This document shows, piece by piece, positions 1-40,975 of a stretch of DNA of 40,975 nucleotides (within the stretch, counting starts at the first letter, position 1; the number at the start of each line of letters is the position of its first letter). A model generated the notes under the pieces. It had not been told where the DNA came from and did not search any database. It was given only the letters and a program-made list of their open reading frames with translations. Position numbers and translations under genes: made by a program. The stretch comes from a virus, in IMG/VR virus record IMGVR_UViG_3300031576_000141, positions 1 through 40,975 of that record; one strand, given 5' to 3'.

Positions 1-229
1 CGATACCCCGGAAACGGGGGGCGACAACAGGGCGGTCGCAGCGGATAGCCAGGCCGTGGACGGTGTCGATACCCCGGAAACGGGGGGCGACAACAGGAAA
101 ATCGCGGTCTGCTATGTGAAGGCTGCAGGTGTCGATACCGCGGAAACGGGGGGCGACAACAGGTGCGTTCAAGAATTAGCCACGGTAGCCGTTGGTGTCG
201 ATACCCCGGGAACGGGGGGCGATGACAGG
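1..229 (+). CRISPR. CRISPR-like array inside the TnpB-like frame, left copy
   Basis: Four repeats lie at 1-31 (partial), 62-97, 128-163 and 194-229. Three unique 30-bp spacers lie at 32-61, 98-127 and 164-193. The complete repeat unit is 36 bp and can fold as TGTCG / CCCCG-GAAA-CGGGG / CGACA, a stem with a GNRA tetraloop and a small internal loop. The repeat at 128 has one C-to-G change in the stem. The last repeat (194-229) is degenerate, with loop GGAA and an altered 3' side, as expected at the trailer end of a CRISPR array. The spacers share no sequence with one another, unlike a minisatellite. The 66-bp period keeps the coding frame open, each unit reading GVDTPETGGDNR plus ten variable residues. 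Compared with the right-hand copy this one has the extra unit at 98-163. Confidence 0.8.
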
Positions 230-709
230 AAACGCTTTGATGACCGCCAACACGCGATAGCTGTCGGCACCCATCAGCAGGCGATGGCACGCTGCGTACG
301 CGGCTCGTACCGCTATCGCCAGCACCGAGCCGCCAAGGCGATGCACGAGGCCAGGGATGCCGCGCGCCGCAATTGGCGGCTTCACAACTGGACCACGCGA
401 ATCGTTGCCAGGGCGGCCGATCTCACCGTCGTGAAGCCGCGTTCGATCAAGGCGGCGACCGCGACGGCGCACGGCACGCCTAACGACCCCGGCGCCGAAG
501 TGGTGTTCAAGGCGAAGGTCAATCGCCGCATTCTCGACCAGGCGCCGGCGATGGCAATCGCGATGCTGGAATACAAGGCCGCCGAGGCGGGATGCCGGCT
601 CACGCTGATCGATGCTGCGGTCCACAAGACCGACGTCCCCGCTGCCATCGTGGCGGCGGCTAAAACCGTGAGAAAGGCAAAGCACGATGTCAGCCACGCC
701 AACCGATGA
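1..709 (+). CDS. TnpB/OrfB-like protein, C-terminal part (continues from 39972-40975)
   Basis: This is the 3' part of the gene that starts at 39972; the map is circular and the frame is continuous. The first 76 codons are the in-frame repeat array. After it comes an arginine-rich helix (ARCVRGSYRYRQHRA) matching the region before RuvC-II in TnpB. Next is TRIVARAADLTVVKPRSIK, which aligns with the usual 'strLvr..dvivvEdLnvk', then NRRILD and MLEYKAAEAGCRLTLID, matching the conserved 'LeYKaewaGrrlv.vd' block. The RuvC-II glutamate is a lysine here. The CxxC zinc finger and the RuvC-III 'D.NAA.N' segment are absent; about 30 unrelated residues end the protein. TnpB proteins are RNA-guided nucleases of IS200/IS605 elements; the visible losses predict DNA binding without cleavage. 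The family is assigned by reading motifs, not by a search. Confidence 0.75.
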   Translation, partial: DTPETGGDNRAVAADSQAVDGVDTPETGGDNRKIAVCYVKAAGVDTAETGGDNRCVQELATVAVGVDTPGTGGDDRKRFDDRQHAIAVGTHQQAMARCVRGSYRYRQHRAAKAMHEARDAARRNWRLHNWTTRIVARAADLTVVKPRSIKAATATAHGTPNDPGAEVVFKAKVNRRILDQAPAMAIAMLEYKAAEAGCRLTLIDAAVHKTDVPAAIVAAAKTVRKAKHDVSHANR

Positions 710-920
710 AGTCGCCGAATTGGAGCACATGACGATGGTGTGCACCGCCATGATCGACGTGATCAATGATATCAGGGCCGACACCATCGGCCTTGATGCC
801 GCCGCCGTCATCGTCAACGCCGGCCACGTCGCCGTGCAGGCCATGAAGATCGGATTCCTGATCCGCATGGCCCGGATTGACAACCCGGATGTATTGGCCG
901 AACTGCCCGTAACCGGGTAG
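687..920 (+). CDS. Hypothetical 77-aa protein downstream of the TnpB-like gene
   Basis: The ATG at 687 overlaps the last 23 bases of the TnpB-like gene, and 'agaaaggcaaag' just before it can act as a weak ribosome binding site. The product is acidic at the N-terminus and then has a long alanine/valine-rich helical stretch (GLDAAAVIVNAGHVAVQAMK). I recognise no family. Because it is translationally coupled to the TnpB-like gene it may work with it. It is the last plus-strand gene before the convergent minus-strand block. Confidence 0.55.
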   Translation: MSATPTDEVAELEHMTMVCTAMIDVINDIRADTIGLDAAAVIVNAGHVAVQAMKIGFLIRMARIDNPDVLAELPVTG

Positions 921-32878: not shown

Positions 32879-33008
32879 CCGGCGATGATAGACGATCCGT
32901 CATAACCGCGTCAAGCGCAACCGCGTCGATGCCGGCGCGGCCGGGCAGGATGTCGCGGCAGTCGCCGAGATGCAGCTCGACGCCGGGGAAGCGCTCGACC
33001 CGCGTCAT
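32879..33008 (-). pseudogene. 5' remnant of a second DNA methyltransferase
   Basis: A frame starting at ATG 33008, overlapping the methyltransferase stop (ATGA), reads MTRVERFPGVELHLGDCRDILPG, then GIDAVALDAVMTD. This is the start of an N4/N6 DNA methyltransferase ('l..gDc.dilp.l...DaVvTDPPY'). At 'VMTD', where PPY should follow, the similarity ends and the HNH gene begins. The rest of the methyltransferase is missing from the window. The stump likely records insertion of the endonuclease with deletion of the catalytic part. Confidence 0.6.
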
Positions 33009-34516
33009 GCGAGCAGCGGCGCGTCGGCGGTAATCCTGGACTCGGCCATGTTCGCGTAATCGTCGCTCAACTCGACCAGGATCGCGTCCCGCCCGAGCCG
33101 ATCGGCGACCAGGCCAACCGTGCCGCTCCCGCCGAAGGGATCGAGACAGACGCATGGCCGCACGCCGGCGCCGCACTCGCACGACGGCCGCCAGCCGAGC
33201 GTGATTGTCTCGGAGATATCTCGCCAATGGCCGACTCCGGTCGCGCCGATGCGTTGCGGCGTCCCGTCCGTGCTGCTGCCATGCCAGCTGCCCTGCAACG
33301 GTTCCCCGTCGCGGGTGCGAGTCGTTCTAGTCTCCCGCCGCCACGGCGCCCCGCACTTGGCGCAGGCGCCCTTGGCCGATGTGCCGGCCAGAATCAGCGG
33401 CTCGACAAGCCGCTCCGGAAACGTGGCGAAATGGGCGCCGGGAAAGGGCTGCGGCGGCACATCCAGCGCCAGCGGCTCGCCATCGGCATCTGAGATCAGC
33501 CCGAACGGCGCTTCGAGCGACTGGTAGAACAGATCGCTGTTCCGGAAGTTGCGGCCGTCAGCCTGCTGCTCCTTGCGGCCCATGCGATCCCAGCGATCGT
33601 TGAAGCCGGCATGCGGGCTGGCATGGCCGCGCTGCTTGTCCGGCCGGTTGTGCCGAACCGTGTCATGCGCGCCGGGTGCCGTGTCCCAGCCGGCCGGCTT
33701 GCGCCGCGCCAGGTTTTCCAGGGCATTGCGCGCCGATCGGTTGCCGCTGTGCGGATCCTTCGGCCCGCCGGTCTGCGTGTCGAAGCTCGCCTGCGAGATC
33801 CGCGCCACCGATGCGGTCGCCAGCGGCGATCTCACCGCGACATGATCGTAGAAATATCGCGCTGACTTCGTCAGAAGGAATACATGCTCCACCGCCGACG
33901 TGGGCCGGTCCTTGGCACTTTCAGGCATCGCCGAGCGCTTGACCCAGGGCAGCATCGCCCGCAGATACCAGCCGTCTGCTTGCAGCGCCATCGCCACACG
34001 CGCCGGCATCATCAGCAGATCCTTGGGCTTGGCGCCGAAGGCCCCCGCCGTCGAGAAGGGCTTATCCCTGAATGTCCGGTCGTCGTTGCCGGCGGCTTTG
34101 GTGTCTGCGGCACTGCGGCCGTTGGCCGTGGAGGCATAGGTATCGCCATAATTGAGCCACAGCACGCCATCATGGCGAAGGATTCGCTTCACCTCGCGGA
34201 AGACATCAACCAGGACGGCAATGTGCTCCTCAGCCGTCGCCTCAAGACCGATCTGCCGGTCGATACGCGTGGCGCCACAACGGTAACAATCGCCGGCCCA
34301 TCGGCCGGGATGCGTCTTGCTGTTGCTGTGATTGCGGGTTCGGCCGGCATCGTCAGGCGCGGCGTGCGAACAGGCCGCGTCGCCGCCTTCCCACTGTGCA
34401 GTCCCGTAATCCCTGAGCCCAAAATAGGGCGGAGAAGTGATCACGCACTGCACCGACTCCGCCGCCAGCGTCGGCAGCACGTCCCGCACGTCGCCGCGGA
34501 TCACTCTTGTTGCCAT
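33005..34516 (-). CDS. N4/N6 DNA methyltransferase (beta class), 503 aa
   Basis: MATRVIRGDVRDVLPTLAAESVQCVITSPPYFGLRDYG holds catalytic motif IV (TSPPY, residues 27-31). Near the C-terminus LDPFGGSGTVGLVADRLGRDAILVELS is the AdoMet-binding motif I (about residues 459-466), so the order is IV then I as in beta-class enzymes (CcrM/HinfI type). The large middle region carries possible zinc pairs (CYRCG, CAKCG) and a target recognition region. It would modify phage DNA against host restriction, or alter GANTC-type signals; specificity cannot be read. No paired restriction enzyme is visible, so it is an orphan. Confidence 0.9.
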   Translation of the reverse strand: MATRVIRGDVRDVLPTLAAESVQCVITSPPYFGLRDYGTAQWEGGDAACSHAAPDDAGRTRNHSNSKTHPGRWAGDCYRCGATRIDRQIGLEATAEEHIAVLVDVFREVKRILRHDGVLWLNYGDTYASTANGRSAADTKAAGNDDRTFRDKPFSTAGAFGAKPKDLLMMPARVAMALQADGWYLRAMLPWVKRSAMPESAKDRPTSAVEHVFLLTKSARYFYDHVAVRSPLATASVARISQASFDTQTGGPKDPHSGNRSARNALENLARRKPAGWDTAPGAHDTVRHNRPDKQRGHASPHAGFNDRWDRMGRKEQQADGRNFRNSDLFYQSLEAPFGLISDADGEPLALDVPPQPFPGAHFATFPERLVEPLILAGTSAKGACAKCGAPWRRETRTTRTRDGEPLQGSWHGSSTDGTPQRIGATGVGHWRDISETITLGWRPSCECGAGVRPCVCLDPFGGSGTVGLVADRLGRDAILVELSDDYANMAESRITADAPLLA

Positions 34517-34644
34517 CGCCGCGGCATCCCGTTCCACAGATCGGACTGGATGGAGAACCGCGCAGCATCCCGTCTGTCTGTCCTGAGCGGGACGATCTGG
34601 GTCTCGACAATGCCGCCGACCTCAGCCCATTTGGACCGCATCAT
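34501..34644 (-). CDS. Small hypothetical protein before the methyltransferase, 47 aa
   Basis: ATG 34644 gives MMRSKWAEVGGIVETQIVPLRTDRRD and a tryptophan-containing end (FSIQSDLWNGMPRRWQQE). It overlaps the methyltransferase start by 16 bases. The frame stays open upstream with protein-like sequence (CHERCPHIFLGPAPRLRRDF) but without a standard start. It fills an otherwise empty 230-bp gap in the operon. Function unknown. Confidence 0.4.
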   Translation of the reverse strand: MMRSKWAEVGGIVETQIVPLRTDRRDAARFSIQSDLWNGMPRRWQQE

Positions 34645-36602: not shown

Positions 36603-36685
36603 GCCATTGTCGCCTGCCGGGGTCTCCTTCTGACAGGCGGCGGGCGCCGCCGACGGCCTCGAACTGTCGGCAATGCCAGGAGACG

Positions 36686-36722
36686 GGACGGCGTTCGCGT
36701 CATCCCCCCGCGAACACCGTCC
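36686..36722 (+). promoter_or_regulatory. Long hairpin in the leader of the 36754 operon
   Basis: GGACGGCGTTCGCG (36686-36699) pairs with CGCGAACACCGTCC (36709-36722) with one mismatch and a 9-nt loop. GCCGAC/GTCGGC and GGCGGC/GCCGCC hairpins precede it at about 36637-36671. The leader between promoter and ATG is about 150 nt, long for this compact genome, so RNA-level control of the operon is plausible. Confidence 0.5.
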
Positions 36723-36753
36723 TGCCCTTGGAATTGAAACTGCGGAGGTCCCA

Positions 36754-37374
36754 ATGACATTCAAGATGTACGGTCTTCGAACCGTCAACCGTGACGGCAC
36801 CAGCTACAGGGGCTTCGTCTGGCCTCTCGTCGTTGACGCCCGCGTCGAGGCTACGGACTGGGACCCCGCCGATCGCTGCGGCGGGGGGCTTCACTTCCTG
36901 CCCTGGGGCTGCGGCAACGTCAGCACTTGCGACCTCAACGATGGCGCGACCTGGCTCGTGATCGGCACCGATGACGAGGTCGTCGAAATCACCTCCGACG
37001 GCGGCGGCAAGAGCAAGACCAAATCTGCCACCGTCATCTTCGTCGGCAACCGCACGGACGCGATCGACCGCATCCGGGCGCTCGGCGCTGCCGGGAAGCC
37101 CCACATATTCAGCACCGCGACCGCCGGCGAGGGCGGCAATGCGACCGCCGGCCATGGCGGCAACGCCACCGCCGGCGACCGCGGCACCGCGACCGCCGGC
37201 CATGGCGGCACCGCGACCGCCGGCGACCGCGGCACCATCATAATTAAACGGTGGGATGAAAAGACGAAGCGCTATCGGCTCGCGGTGGGCTACGTCGGCG
37301 AGGGCGGCATCGAAGCGGGCACTGCCTATGGCGTCGCCAGTGGAGGAAGAATCATCAAGGCCGTAACAGTATGA
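36754..37374 (+). CDS. DUF7666-like / repeat-containing phage protein, 206 aa
   Basis: A GCGGAGG site precedes ATG 36754. The N-terminal part (MYGLRTVNRDGTSYRGFVWPL, DRCGGGLHFLPWGCG, ATWLVIGTDDEVVEI) resembles phage proteins with the 'GFhf...c' core often fused to pentapeptide-like repeats. Residues 122-161 are five tandem 8-residue repeats (ATAGxxGx), encoded by 24-bp DNA repeats. The C-terminus (TKRYRLAVGYVGEGGIEAGTAY) is a short beta segment. These proteins are common in phages; their biochemical role is not established. Confidence 0.65.
   Translation: MTFKMYGLRTVNRDGTSYRGFVWPLVVDARVEATDWDPADRCGGGLHFLPWGCGNVSTCDLNDGATWLVIGTDDEVVEITSDGGGKSKTKSATVIFVGNRTDAIDRIRALGAAGKPHIFSTATAGEGGNATAGHGGNATAGDRGTATAGHGGTATAGDRGTIIIKRWDEKTKRYRLAVGYVGEGGIEAGTAYGVASGGRIIKAVTV
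37117..37236 (+). repeat. Five tandem 24-bp repeats in the 36754 gene
   Basis: Each unit encodes ATAG followed by EGGN, HGGN, DRGT, HGGT or DRGT. Units two to five alternate between two types and are almost identical in DNA, suggesting recent slippage or unequal exchange. The repeat number could vary between isolates. Confidence 0.8.
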
Positions 37375-39971: not shown

Positions 39972-40975
39972 ATGGCCGATTCCGTCATCCGCCGCTACAC
40001 CTACAAGGTGTATCCATCGGCCGACCAGAAGGCCGAGCTGGATCGCGTGCGGCGGATGTGCGCGAGCTTGTACAATGCGCTGCTACAGCAGCGAATCGAG
40101 GCGTACCAGCGGCGGCGGAAGACCCTCACCTATTACGACCAATGCAAGGAGCTGACCGCGCTGCGCCATGAAATGCCGGAATGGGCTGCGCTGTCATCAT
40201 CGATGATGGCCGCAACAGCGCAGCGGCTCGACCGCGCCTACAAGGCATTTTTCTGTCGCGCCAAGGGCGGGGCCGGCGCCGCCAGCGGGTTCCCGAAGTT
40301 CCAGCGATCCGAGGACTATCCCTCGATCCCGTTCAAGCGGCACCGCGATTGCTGGCGCCTGGACGGCGAGGATAGGTATAAGAACCCGCGCCTATGGGTG
40401 CGAGGCATCGGTACCATGGAGACGCGCGGGCGATTGCCTGGCGTACCGGCGGAACTCAGGATCGGTGAACTGCTTTGGCGTCAGAGTGCGTGGTGGCTTT
40501 CTATCGTGGTCAAGATGTCGCCGCGCCGAGTGGCCGGCCAGGACGCCGGTCGGATCAACTTCGATCTGATCGACACGTTTGCGGAGGTTACATGGGAGTC
40601 TAATCCAGACCACGGCCGATGTCCGGCCGGCGCCGAGGACGCGGTTTCGGCCGCGCCCAAAGCGCGAATCAATCCTCGAATTCATGGGGTTAAGGAGTCA
40701 TCGGGTGTCGATACCCCGGAAACGGGGGGCGACAACAGGTCAGTGCCCGCTGGCGTGTCGTCGATGATCGGTGTCGATACCCCGGAAACGGGGGGCGACA
40801 ACAGGGCGGTCGCAGCGGATAGCCAGGCCGTGGACGGTGTCGATACCCCGGAAACGGGGGGCGACAACAGGTGCGTTCAAGAATTAGCCACGGTAGCCGT
40901 TGGTGTCGATACCCCGGGAACGGGGGGCGATGACAGGAAACGCTTTGATGACCGCCAACACGCGATAGCTGTCGG
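39972..40975 (+). CDS. TnpB/OrfB (Cas12-ancestor)-like protein, N-terminal part, array inside
   Basis: ATG 39972 gives MADSVIRRYTYKVYPSADQK, a TnpB start. The helical recognition region follows (LYNALLQQRIEAYQRRRKTLTYYDQCKELTALRHEMPEW) with AYKAFFCRAKGG and GFPKFQ. Then comes the beta-barrel part (WRLDGEDRYKNPRLWVRGIGTME, LLWRQSAWWLSIVVKM). RuvC-I reads INFDLIDTFAEV, with the catalytic-position Asp198 kept but the usual glycine after DL lost. INPRIHG corresponds to the 'nPr' segment after RuvC-I. At residue 245 the frame enters the repeat array and stays open to the window end, continuing at position 1. Without the array the full protein is about 400 residues, close to TnpB. No TnpA or IS ends were recognised. 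Confidence 0.8.
   Translation, partial: MADSVIRRYTYKVYPSADQKAELDRVRRMCASLYNALLQQRIEAYQRRRKTLTYYDQCKELTALRHEMPEWAALSSSMMAATAQRLDRAYKAFFCRAKGGAGAASGFPKFQRSEDYPSIPFKRHRDCWRLDGEDRYKNPRLWVRGIGTMETRGRLPGVPAELRIGELLWRQSAWWLSIVVKMSPRRVAGQDAGRINFDLIDTFAEVTWESNPDHGRCPAGAEDAVSAAPKARINPRIHGVKESSGVDTPETGGDNRSVPAGVSSMIGVDTPETGGDNRAVAADSQAVDGVDTPETGGDNRCVQELATVAVGVDTPGTGGDDRKRFDDRQHAIAV
40704..40937 (+). CRISPR. CRISPR-like array inside the TnpB-like frame, right copy
   Basis: Four 36-bp repeats start at 40704, 40770, 40836 and 40902, separated by three 30-bp spacers (40740-40769, 40806-40835, 40872-40901). The first three repeats are identical; the last is degenerate (loop GGAA, altered 3' side), marking the trailer end. 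Each repeat folds as an extended hairpin with GNRA loop, 5' of its spacer on the gene's sense strand, as in type V crRNAs. Compared with the left copy this one lacks the unit at 98-163 but shows the leader-proximal spacer 40740-40769. Joined on the circle, the longest supported array is five repeats and four spacers, 300 bp. Confidence 0.8.
40775..40975 (+). repeat. Terminal redundancy with the window start
   Basis: These 201 bases equal bases 1-267 except for a 66-bp unit (98-163) present only on the left. This indicates a circular or terminally redundant genome of about 40,774 bp and shows that the overlap is not exact because of the array. Confidence 0.85.

What the first reader, a model, noticed from the sequence alone, without database searches (positions are those of the whole stretch)
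230..709. Effector looks nuclease-dead
Seen: RuvC-I aspartate retained but motif altered (DLID in place of DLGI), RuvC-II 'VVEDL' is VVKPR (Glu to Lys), and the zinc finger plus RuvC-III are missing. Known: TnpB-like nuclease-dead repressors (TldR) and Cas12m bind DNA through guides and silence genes without cutting. Inference: this phage protein may be a guide-directed repressor, possibly of host or rival-phage genes.
Basis: partly seen in the sequence, partly recalled or inferred. Interest (0 to 1): 0.7.

Follow-up and report, generated by a model that had tools for sequence, protein, structure and literature searches.

The report
Dead TnpB gene hosting CRISPR array
A bacterial virus carries a TnpB-type RNA-guided protein that has probably lost its DNA-cutting residues, and a small CRISPR-like array of guides sits in reading frame inside the gene for that protein, which would be an unusually compact gene-silencing system if it works.

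Summary
The window is a phage record whose two ends meet inside one locus. Window 230-709 is the C-terminal half of a TnpB-like protein; the N-terminal half is 39972-40703. Between them, in the same reading frame, lies a CRISPR-like array: 36-nt repeats, unrelated 30-nt spacers, period 66 nt = 22 codons. The contig ends hold two array states, one unit apart. The nuclease-dead reading holds: RuvC-II Glu is Lys (ungapped against RdCas12n) and the zinc finger is absent; 28 of 29 readable relatives keep everything. The RuvC-I Asp is kept but its position is ambiguous, and a possible RuvC-III Asp survives, so 'RuvC-III missing' is only partly right. One second phage, L001, has the same architecture and also lost the Glu (Ala). 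Both halves evolve under purifying selection, which argues against a plain pseudogene, but L001's own copy is frame-broken. Most likely it is a TnpB/Cas12n-derived, nuclease-dead, guide-directed DNA binder with its own array; guide use, DNA binding and targets are inferred. No spacer target was found, and my paper searches listed no effector gene with its array inside it.

The parts
39972..40703 (+). N-terminal half of the TnpB-like effector (WED/REC-like, up to the RuvC-I region; candidate Asp at 40542-40544 and 40563-40565)
   Evidence: PF12323 HTH_OrfB_IS605 E 3e-8; phrog_506 7.8e-20; ISDra2 TnpB 3e-15; AF2 model pLDDT 74, Foldseek top hits ISDra2 TnpB E 4e-9
40704..40937 (+). CRISPR-like array as at the right contig end: repeat, s1 (40740-40769), repeat, s2 (40806-40835), repeat, s4 (40872-40901), degenerate last repeat (40902-40937); in frame with the effector, no stop
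1..229 (+). The same array at the left contig end in another state: partial repeat, s2 (32-61), repeat, s3 (98-127), repeat with one change, s4 (164-193), degenerate last repeat (194-229); in frame, no stop
230..709 (+). C-terminal half of the effector: helical linker, RuvC-II strand with Lys (434-436) in place of Glu, no zinc finger, possible RuvC-III remnant KTDVPAA, conserved basic tail; first in-frame ATG after the array at 284
687..920 (+). 77-aa ORF overlapping the effector's end; 27% identical to the ORF at the same place in L001 (5239-5502); function unknown
   Evidence: selection test not significant

Best explanation
This is a phage-borne, nuclease-dead TnpB derivative (C-terminal half nearest to Cas12n/V-U4 among solved chains) whose gene also contains its own mini CRISPR array, in frame, between the RuvC-I and RuvC-II coding parts. 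Shown: homology to TnpB, loss of the RuvC-II Glu and zinc finger, array structure, in-frame position in two different phages, two array states at the contig ends, purifying selection on both halves. Inferred: one transcript is both mRNA and crRNA precursor; hairpin repeats are processed into guides; the protein binds guide RNA and holds on to matching DNA without cutting, blocking transcription or replication of a competitor or host target, as Cas12m and TldR do.
For: TnpB/Cas12 homology of both halves. Glu to Lys (window) and Ala (L001), zinc finger gone in both; 28 of 29 readable relatives intact, 9 of 38 rows unreadable at the motif. Array: identical 36-nt repeats, spacers no more alike than 6-13 of 30 bases, no in-register peptide similarity, P 0.79. 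The window repeat folds better than 200 of 200 shuffles, z -3.56. One unit differs between the ends. L001: same 36+30 design, same place, same frame, in a contig without the window's terminase; repeats 20 of 36 identical in register, shuffle P 0.0012. Selection: N part pS 0.735 vs pN 0.324, C part pS 0.701 vs pN 0.485; pN>=pS in 0 of 1000 bootstraps each.
Against: No spacer target found. No cas1/cas2 recognised in the ORF table by eye, but most ORFs were not scanned by profile. L001's copy is frame-broken between N part and RuvC-I part. L001's repeat folds only slightly better than its shuffles, z -1.28, 21 of 200 as good. Openness of the array is weak evidence: six spacers would all be open by chance in 33% of draws, and a minus-strand frame is open too. 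Only two family members. The downstream ORF shows no significant selection.
Confidence: 0.55

Rival explanations
1. A decaying tnpB: an array or repeat tract landed in a dead transposon gene, and the catalytic losses are simple decay.
For: L001's copy lacks about 15 codons and changes frame between the N part and RuvC-I part; catalytic residues and zinc finger lost.
Against: The window frame is open from 39972 to the right end and from base 2 to 709. pN is below pS in both halves, 0 of 1000 bootstraps contrary. The architecture, the frame and a conserved new C-terminal tail (KTxV...VRxAK) are shared by two phages. Past selection would leave the same mark, so recent decay is not excluded.
Confidence: 0.2
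2. A viral mini-array for the host's own CRISPR effector; the TnpB-like gene around it is incidental.
For: Phage mini-arrays that borrow the host's system are known (PMC11656645, passages read).
Against: The repeat was absent (up to 3 mismatches) from 4 of 4 genomes holding TnpB relatives and from 385 of 385 genomes of one class; the host is unknown, so this is weak. The repeat co-occurs with the same effector in two phages with diverged repeats.
Confidence: 0.1
3. Not CRISPR: a protein-level tandem repeat of 22 residues (12 fixed, 10 variable) inserted in a TnpB-derived protein.
For: In frame in both phages; spacers carry a weak coding signal in the effector's frame (rank sum 12, null mean 21, P 0.019; 0.05 given openness; n = 6).
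Against: Repeats are identical at silent sites too, while the 30-nt parts are unrelated in DNA and show no in-register peptide similarity; the window repeat forms a strong hairpin.
Confidence: 0.1
4. An active nuclease whose acidic residues lie elsewhere (for example the Glu of 'PGAEV' or the Asp of 'KTDVPAA').
For: MAFFT places the gap so that a later stretch faces EDL; an Asp is present in KTDVPAA.
Against: phmmer aligns VVKPRSI to FEDLNV ungapped; the 'GAE' Glu lies in a loop of pLDDT under 50 and is Ala in L001; the KTD Asp is Ala in L001.
Confidence: 0.05

Closest known systems
TnpB of IS200/IS605 elements (ISDra2 TnpB)
   Same: N part homologous over 210 residues (E 3e-15); fold match
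   Different: No intact catalytic set, no zinc finger, and an array of several spacers inside the gene. tnpA and transposon ends were not looked for.
Cas12n (subtype V-N, formerly V-U4; RdCas12n)
   Same: C part best PDB hit, E 4.7e-8. Cas12n is close to TnpB and its tracrRNA lies inside the Cas12n mRNA (PMC11641405, passages).
   Different: Cas12n cleaves DNA (same passages); this one lacks the Glu and zinc finger. The PADLOC Cas12u4 hit is not specific: full-length ordinary TnpBs score far higher on it.
Cas12m (subtype V-M)
   Same: Array-guided, binds DNA without cutting and silences phages and plasmids (PMC11013384, abstract and passages). C-part model matches Cas12m2 weakly.
   Different: Cas12m keeps a zinc finger and has a 'Roof' insertion; that its array lies outside the gene is recalled.
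TldR
   Same: Phage-borne TnpB derivative with inactivated RuvC (PMC13418256, passages)
   Different: TldR works with a guide RNA beside the gene and with partner genes such as flagellin; here there is a multi-spacer array in the gene.
Cyanophage CL131 V-U2 system
   Same: Phage with a TnpB-like protein, an array and no other cas genes (PMC6293099, passages)
   Different: There the array is adjacent to the gene, not inside it.

Membership tests
TnpB (IS200/IS605 OrfB) | Sequence homology over the WED/REC and RuvC regions | tested here: met
TnpB (IS200/IS605 OrfB) | RuvC D-E-D triad and zinc finger | tested here: not met
   Glu is Lys; no zinc finger
Cas12n / V-U4 | C-terminal RuvC closest to Cas12n | tested here: inconclusive
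   Best PDB hit, but full-length ordinary TnpBs match the Cas12u4 profile better than this half-protein does
Cas12n / V-U4 | Active nuclease with tracrRNA | tested here: inconclusive
   Glu lost, so activity is unlikely; no tracrRNA search was made
Cas12m / V-M | Association with a CRISPR array plus an altered RuvC site | tested here: met
Cas12m / V-M | Cas12m-specific sequence, Roof insertion and zinc finger | tested here: not met
   No zinc finger; Cas12m not among the single-sequence PDB hits; Roof not examined separately
TldR | Nuclease-dead TnpB | tested here: met
TldR | Single omega-RNA-type guide beside the gene, matching a host target | tested here: inconclusive
   A multi-spacer array is present instead; host unknown; omega RNA not searched for
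CRISPR array | Near-identical repeats with equal-length unrelated spacers and a degenerate terminal repeat | tested here: met
CRISPR array | Spacers matching foreign DNA | tested here: inconclusive
   No match found; s1 and s3 sought as 21-mers in IMG/VR only, s2 and s4 among phage records only; L001's two spacers only against window and L001
CRISPR array | Transcription and processing into guides | not testable with these tools
   needs RNA data

The most novel reading that the evidence does not exclude
A one-gene adaptive silencer: the array is translated as part of its own effector, so every spacer must keep the frame and lack stops, and cutting the transcript into guides destroys the message for the effector, giving built-in feedback. 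The nuclease-dead protein then holds target DNA as a roadblock. This would be a CRISPR design in which guide store and effector are the same open reading frame.
Probability: 0.3. Interest if true: 0.92.

Novelty: new variant of a known kind. Interest (0 to 1): 0.72.

Why it matters
TnpB gave rise to type V CRISPR several times, and how a single transposon guide became an array is open. A nuclease-dead TnpB with an array nested inside its gene, in two different phages, would be a concrete intermediate or side branch and directly testable. It would also be one of the smallest natural multi-guide DNA-binding systems, and would imply a coding constraint on spacers that, to my knowledge, no standard array has.

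Tried and rejected
PADLOC labels Cas12u4/Cas12f for the C part looked like membership; the control with three full-length ordinary TnpBs scored 111-198 bits on the same two models against 64-68 for this half-protein, so the label is not specific.

The reading-frame openness of the array was first thought striking; by chance six random 30-nt pieces of this genome are all open in 33% of draws, so it is weak alone.

MAFFT put the array peptide (GVD/GAD) against the TnpB RuvC-I motif GID; I take this as an alignment artefact, because FDL[IV]DxFAxV upstream is shared by both phages.

One row (RuvC-I to array) was read in the wrong frame and is void; recomputed (pS 0.518, pN 0.415, not significant). 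In one search the L001 RuvC-I piece was also read in the wrong frame; only its N and C parts were used from there.

Searches without result: closer relatives in IMG/VR with the window C part, A1 (only L001's contig) and L001's own piece (only itself); exact 18-nt repeat core in IMG/VR; L001 piece in phage records. Array-like runs in L013 and L032 have other periods and were not pursued.

Paper searches for an array inside an effector gene listed none; this covers the open-licence library only, by words.

Full report
What is there. The window is a 40,975-base virus record. Its right end and left end overlap in the same array, differing by one 66-nt unit, so the record is most simply a circular or circularly permuted phage genome opened inside this locus by an assembly that met two array states. 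Read that way, one reading frame starts at ATG 39972, passes the array and ends at 709. The frame is open on both sides of the break. I did not see reads, so the join is inferred.

The gene. The N-terminal half (39972-40703) is TnpB-like: Pfam PF12323 E 3e-8, PHROG 506 E 7.8e-20, ISDra2 TnpB E 3e-15 over 210 residues. Its AlphaFold2 model (mean pLDDT 74; residues 188-245 below 50) matches ISDra2 TnpB best, E 4.4e-9. The C-terminal half (230-709) matches Cas12f/Cas12u4 models at 2e-19 and 2e-18 and RdCas12n at 4.7e-8. Its model (pLDDT 74) matches TnpB and Cas12m2 only weakly, E 0.02 or worse. Full-length ordinary TnpBs match the same PADLOC models far better, so these names show descent, not subtype.

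Nuclease residues. The ungapped phmmer alignment to RdCas12n sets VVKPRSI against FEDLNV: Glu is Lys. In the model the strand ends on that Lys. In the one close relative, L001, the same place reads ITAPASI: Ala. MAFFT, given intact TnpBs, opens a gap instead and faces EDL with a later stretch; that alternative Glu lies in a loop of pLDDT under 50 and is Ala in L001, so I do not accept it. The zinc finger is absent in both. A possible RuvC-III Asp survives in the window (KTDVPAA) but is Ala in L001. The RuvC-I Asp is present, but two candidates exist. Among 38 relative rows read, 9 were unreadable at the motif (L001 among them; others truncated, frame-broken or off-motif); of the 29 readable, 28 keep Asp, Glu, zinc finger and the last Asp, the other being cut short. 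Some of these rows are near-duplicates. So the loss is specific to the window and L001.

The array. Repeats are 36 nt (GGTGTCGATACCCCGGAAACGGGGGGCGACAACAGG), spacers 30 nt, the last repeat degenerate. Six distinct spacers from the two phages share 6-13 of 30 bases pairwise and show no in-register peptide similarity (P 0.79). The window repeat folds to -17.4 kcal/mol, better than all 200 shuffles; L001's repeat is unremarkable, 21 of 200 shuffles as good. The two ends of the record carry s1-s2-s4 and s2-s3-s4, as expected of an array losing or gaining units; an assembly error is not excluded.

A second phage. A scan of IMG/VR with the N half found L001 (IMGVR_UViG_3300022723_000281), 53% identical there. 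It has two 36-nt repeats with 30-nt spacers at the same place and in the same frame, then a C half 39% identical to the window's. Repeats of the two phages share 20 of 36 bases in register (shuffle P 0.0012). The window's terminase was not found in that contig, so the phages differ, though the contig may be incomplete. A small ORF follows the effector in both, 27% identical. L001's copy lacks about 15 codons and changes frame between the N part and the RuvC-I part: it is broken as assembled. Three further scans found no other close member (L003, L026 and L043 are L001's contig again). One search found 22 other viral contigs and sixteen genome loci with TnpB relatives; of the loci held, only L001's contig and the window with L002 (a stretch of the window) showed a 66-nt array.

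Selection. Between window and L001, N part pS 0.735, pN 0.324 (147 codons) and C part pS 0.701, pN 0.485 (145 codons); pN reached pS in 0 of 1000 bootstraps for each. Both halves were therefore translated in this frame for much of their history. The stretch from RuvC-I to the array (52 codons) and the downstream ORF were not significant (161 and 307 of 1000). Synonymous sites are near saturation, so the ratios are to be trusted for direction only.

Is the array translated? No stop interrupts it, and every unit is 22 codons, in both phages. Openness alone is weak (33% by chance). Spacers look slightly more coding in the effector's frame than chance (P 0.019; 0.05 given openness; six spacers). 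In L001 the C half has no start of its own before the motif HMWTT except inside or upstream of the array (from the sequence); in the window an ATG lies at 284 without a clear ribosome site, so separate translation of the window's C half is possible.

Function. By what the families do (Cas12m passages; TldR passages), a TnpB derivative that lost catalysis and kept guides acts as an RNA-guided roadblock. Here this is inference: no guide RNA, binding or target was shown. No spacer match was found, with s1 and s3 tested only as exact 21-mers in IMG/VR and s2 and s4 only among 50,697 phage records. The repeat was not found in 385 of 385 genomes of the class of one TnpB-bearing bacterium, which lightly disfavours a borrowed host system.

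Literature. Seen: passages of PMC12607003, PMC13418256, PMC6293099, PMC11656645, PMC11641405 and PMC11013384; only listings for the rest. Phage TnpB-like genes beside arrays are known; Cas12n carries its tracrRNA within its mRNA. I found no account of an array inside the effector gene, in an open-licence library searched by words only.

Verdict. Nuclease death: about 0.85 likely. Array-guided DNA binding by this protein: about 0.55. Translation through the array with guide production from the same transcript: about 0.3.

Noticed in passing
window 1-229 and 40704-40975: The two contig ends carry two states of the same array, differing by one repeat-spacer unit (s3) and a single-base repeat variant, which probably kept the assembler from closing the circle.
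   Followed up: partly
L001 4440-4520: The relative's gene lacks about 15 codons and changes frame between its N part and RuvC-I part; real lesion or assembly error is not known.
   Followed up: partly
window 687-920; L001 5239-5502: Small ORF with a shared 'AGHVA' motif follows the effector in both phages, overlapping its end; no Pfam or PHROG match for the window copy.
   Followed up: partly
window 36673-37374: ORF with short tandem peptide repeats (ATAG..G), and 48-nt DNA repeats at 37141 and 37168.
   Followed up: no
window 33005-34537 (-): DNA methyltransferase (phrog_67).
   Followed up: no
alignments A4 and A6, window 40704-40937: The repeat-encoded peptide GVDT/GADA resembles the TnpB RuvC-I motif GIDxG; probably chance, but an origin of the repeat from duplicated RuvC-I coding DNA was not tested.
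   Followed up: no
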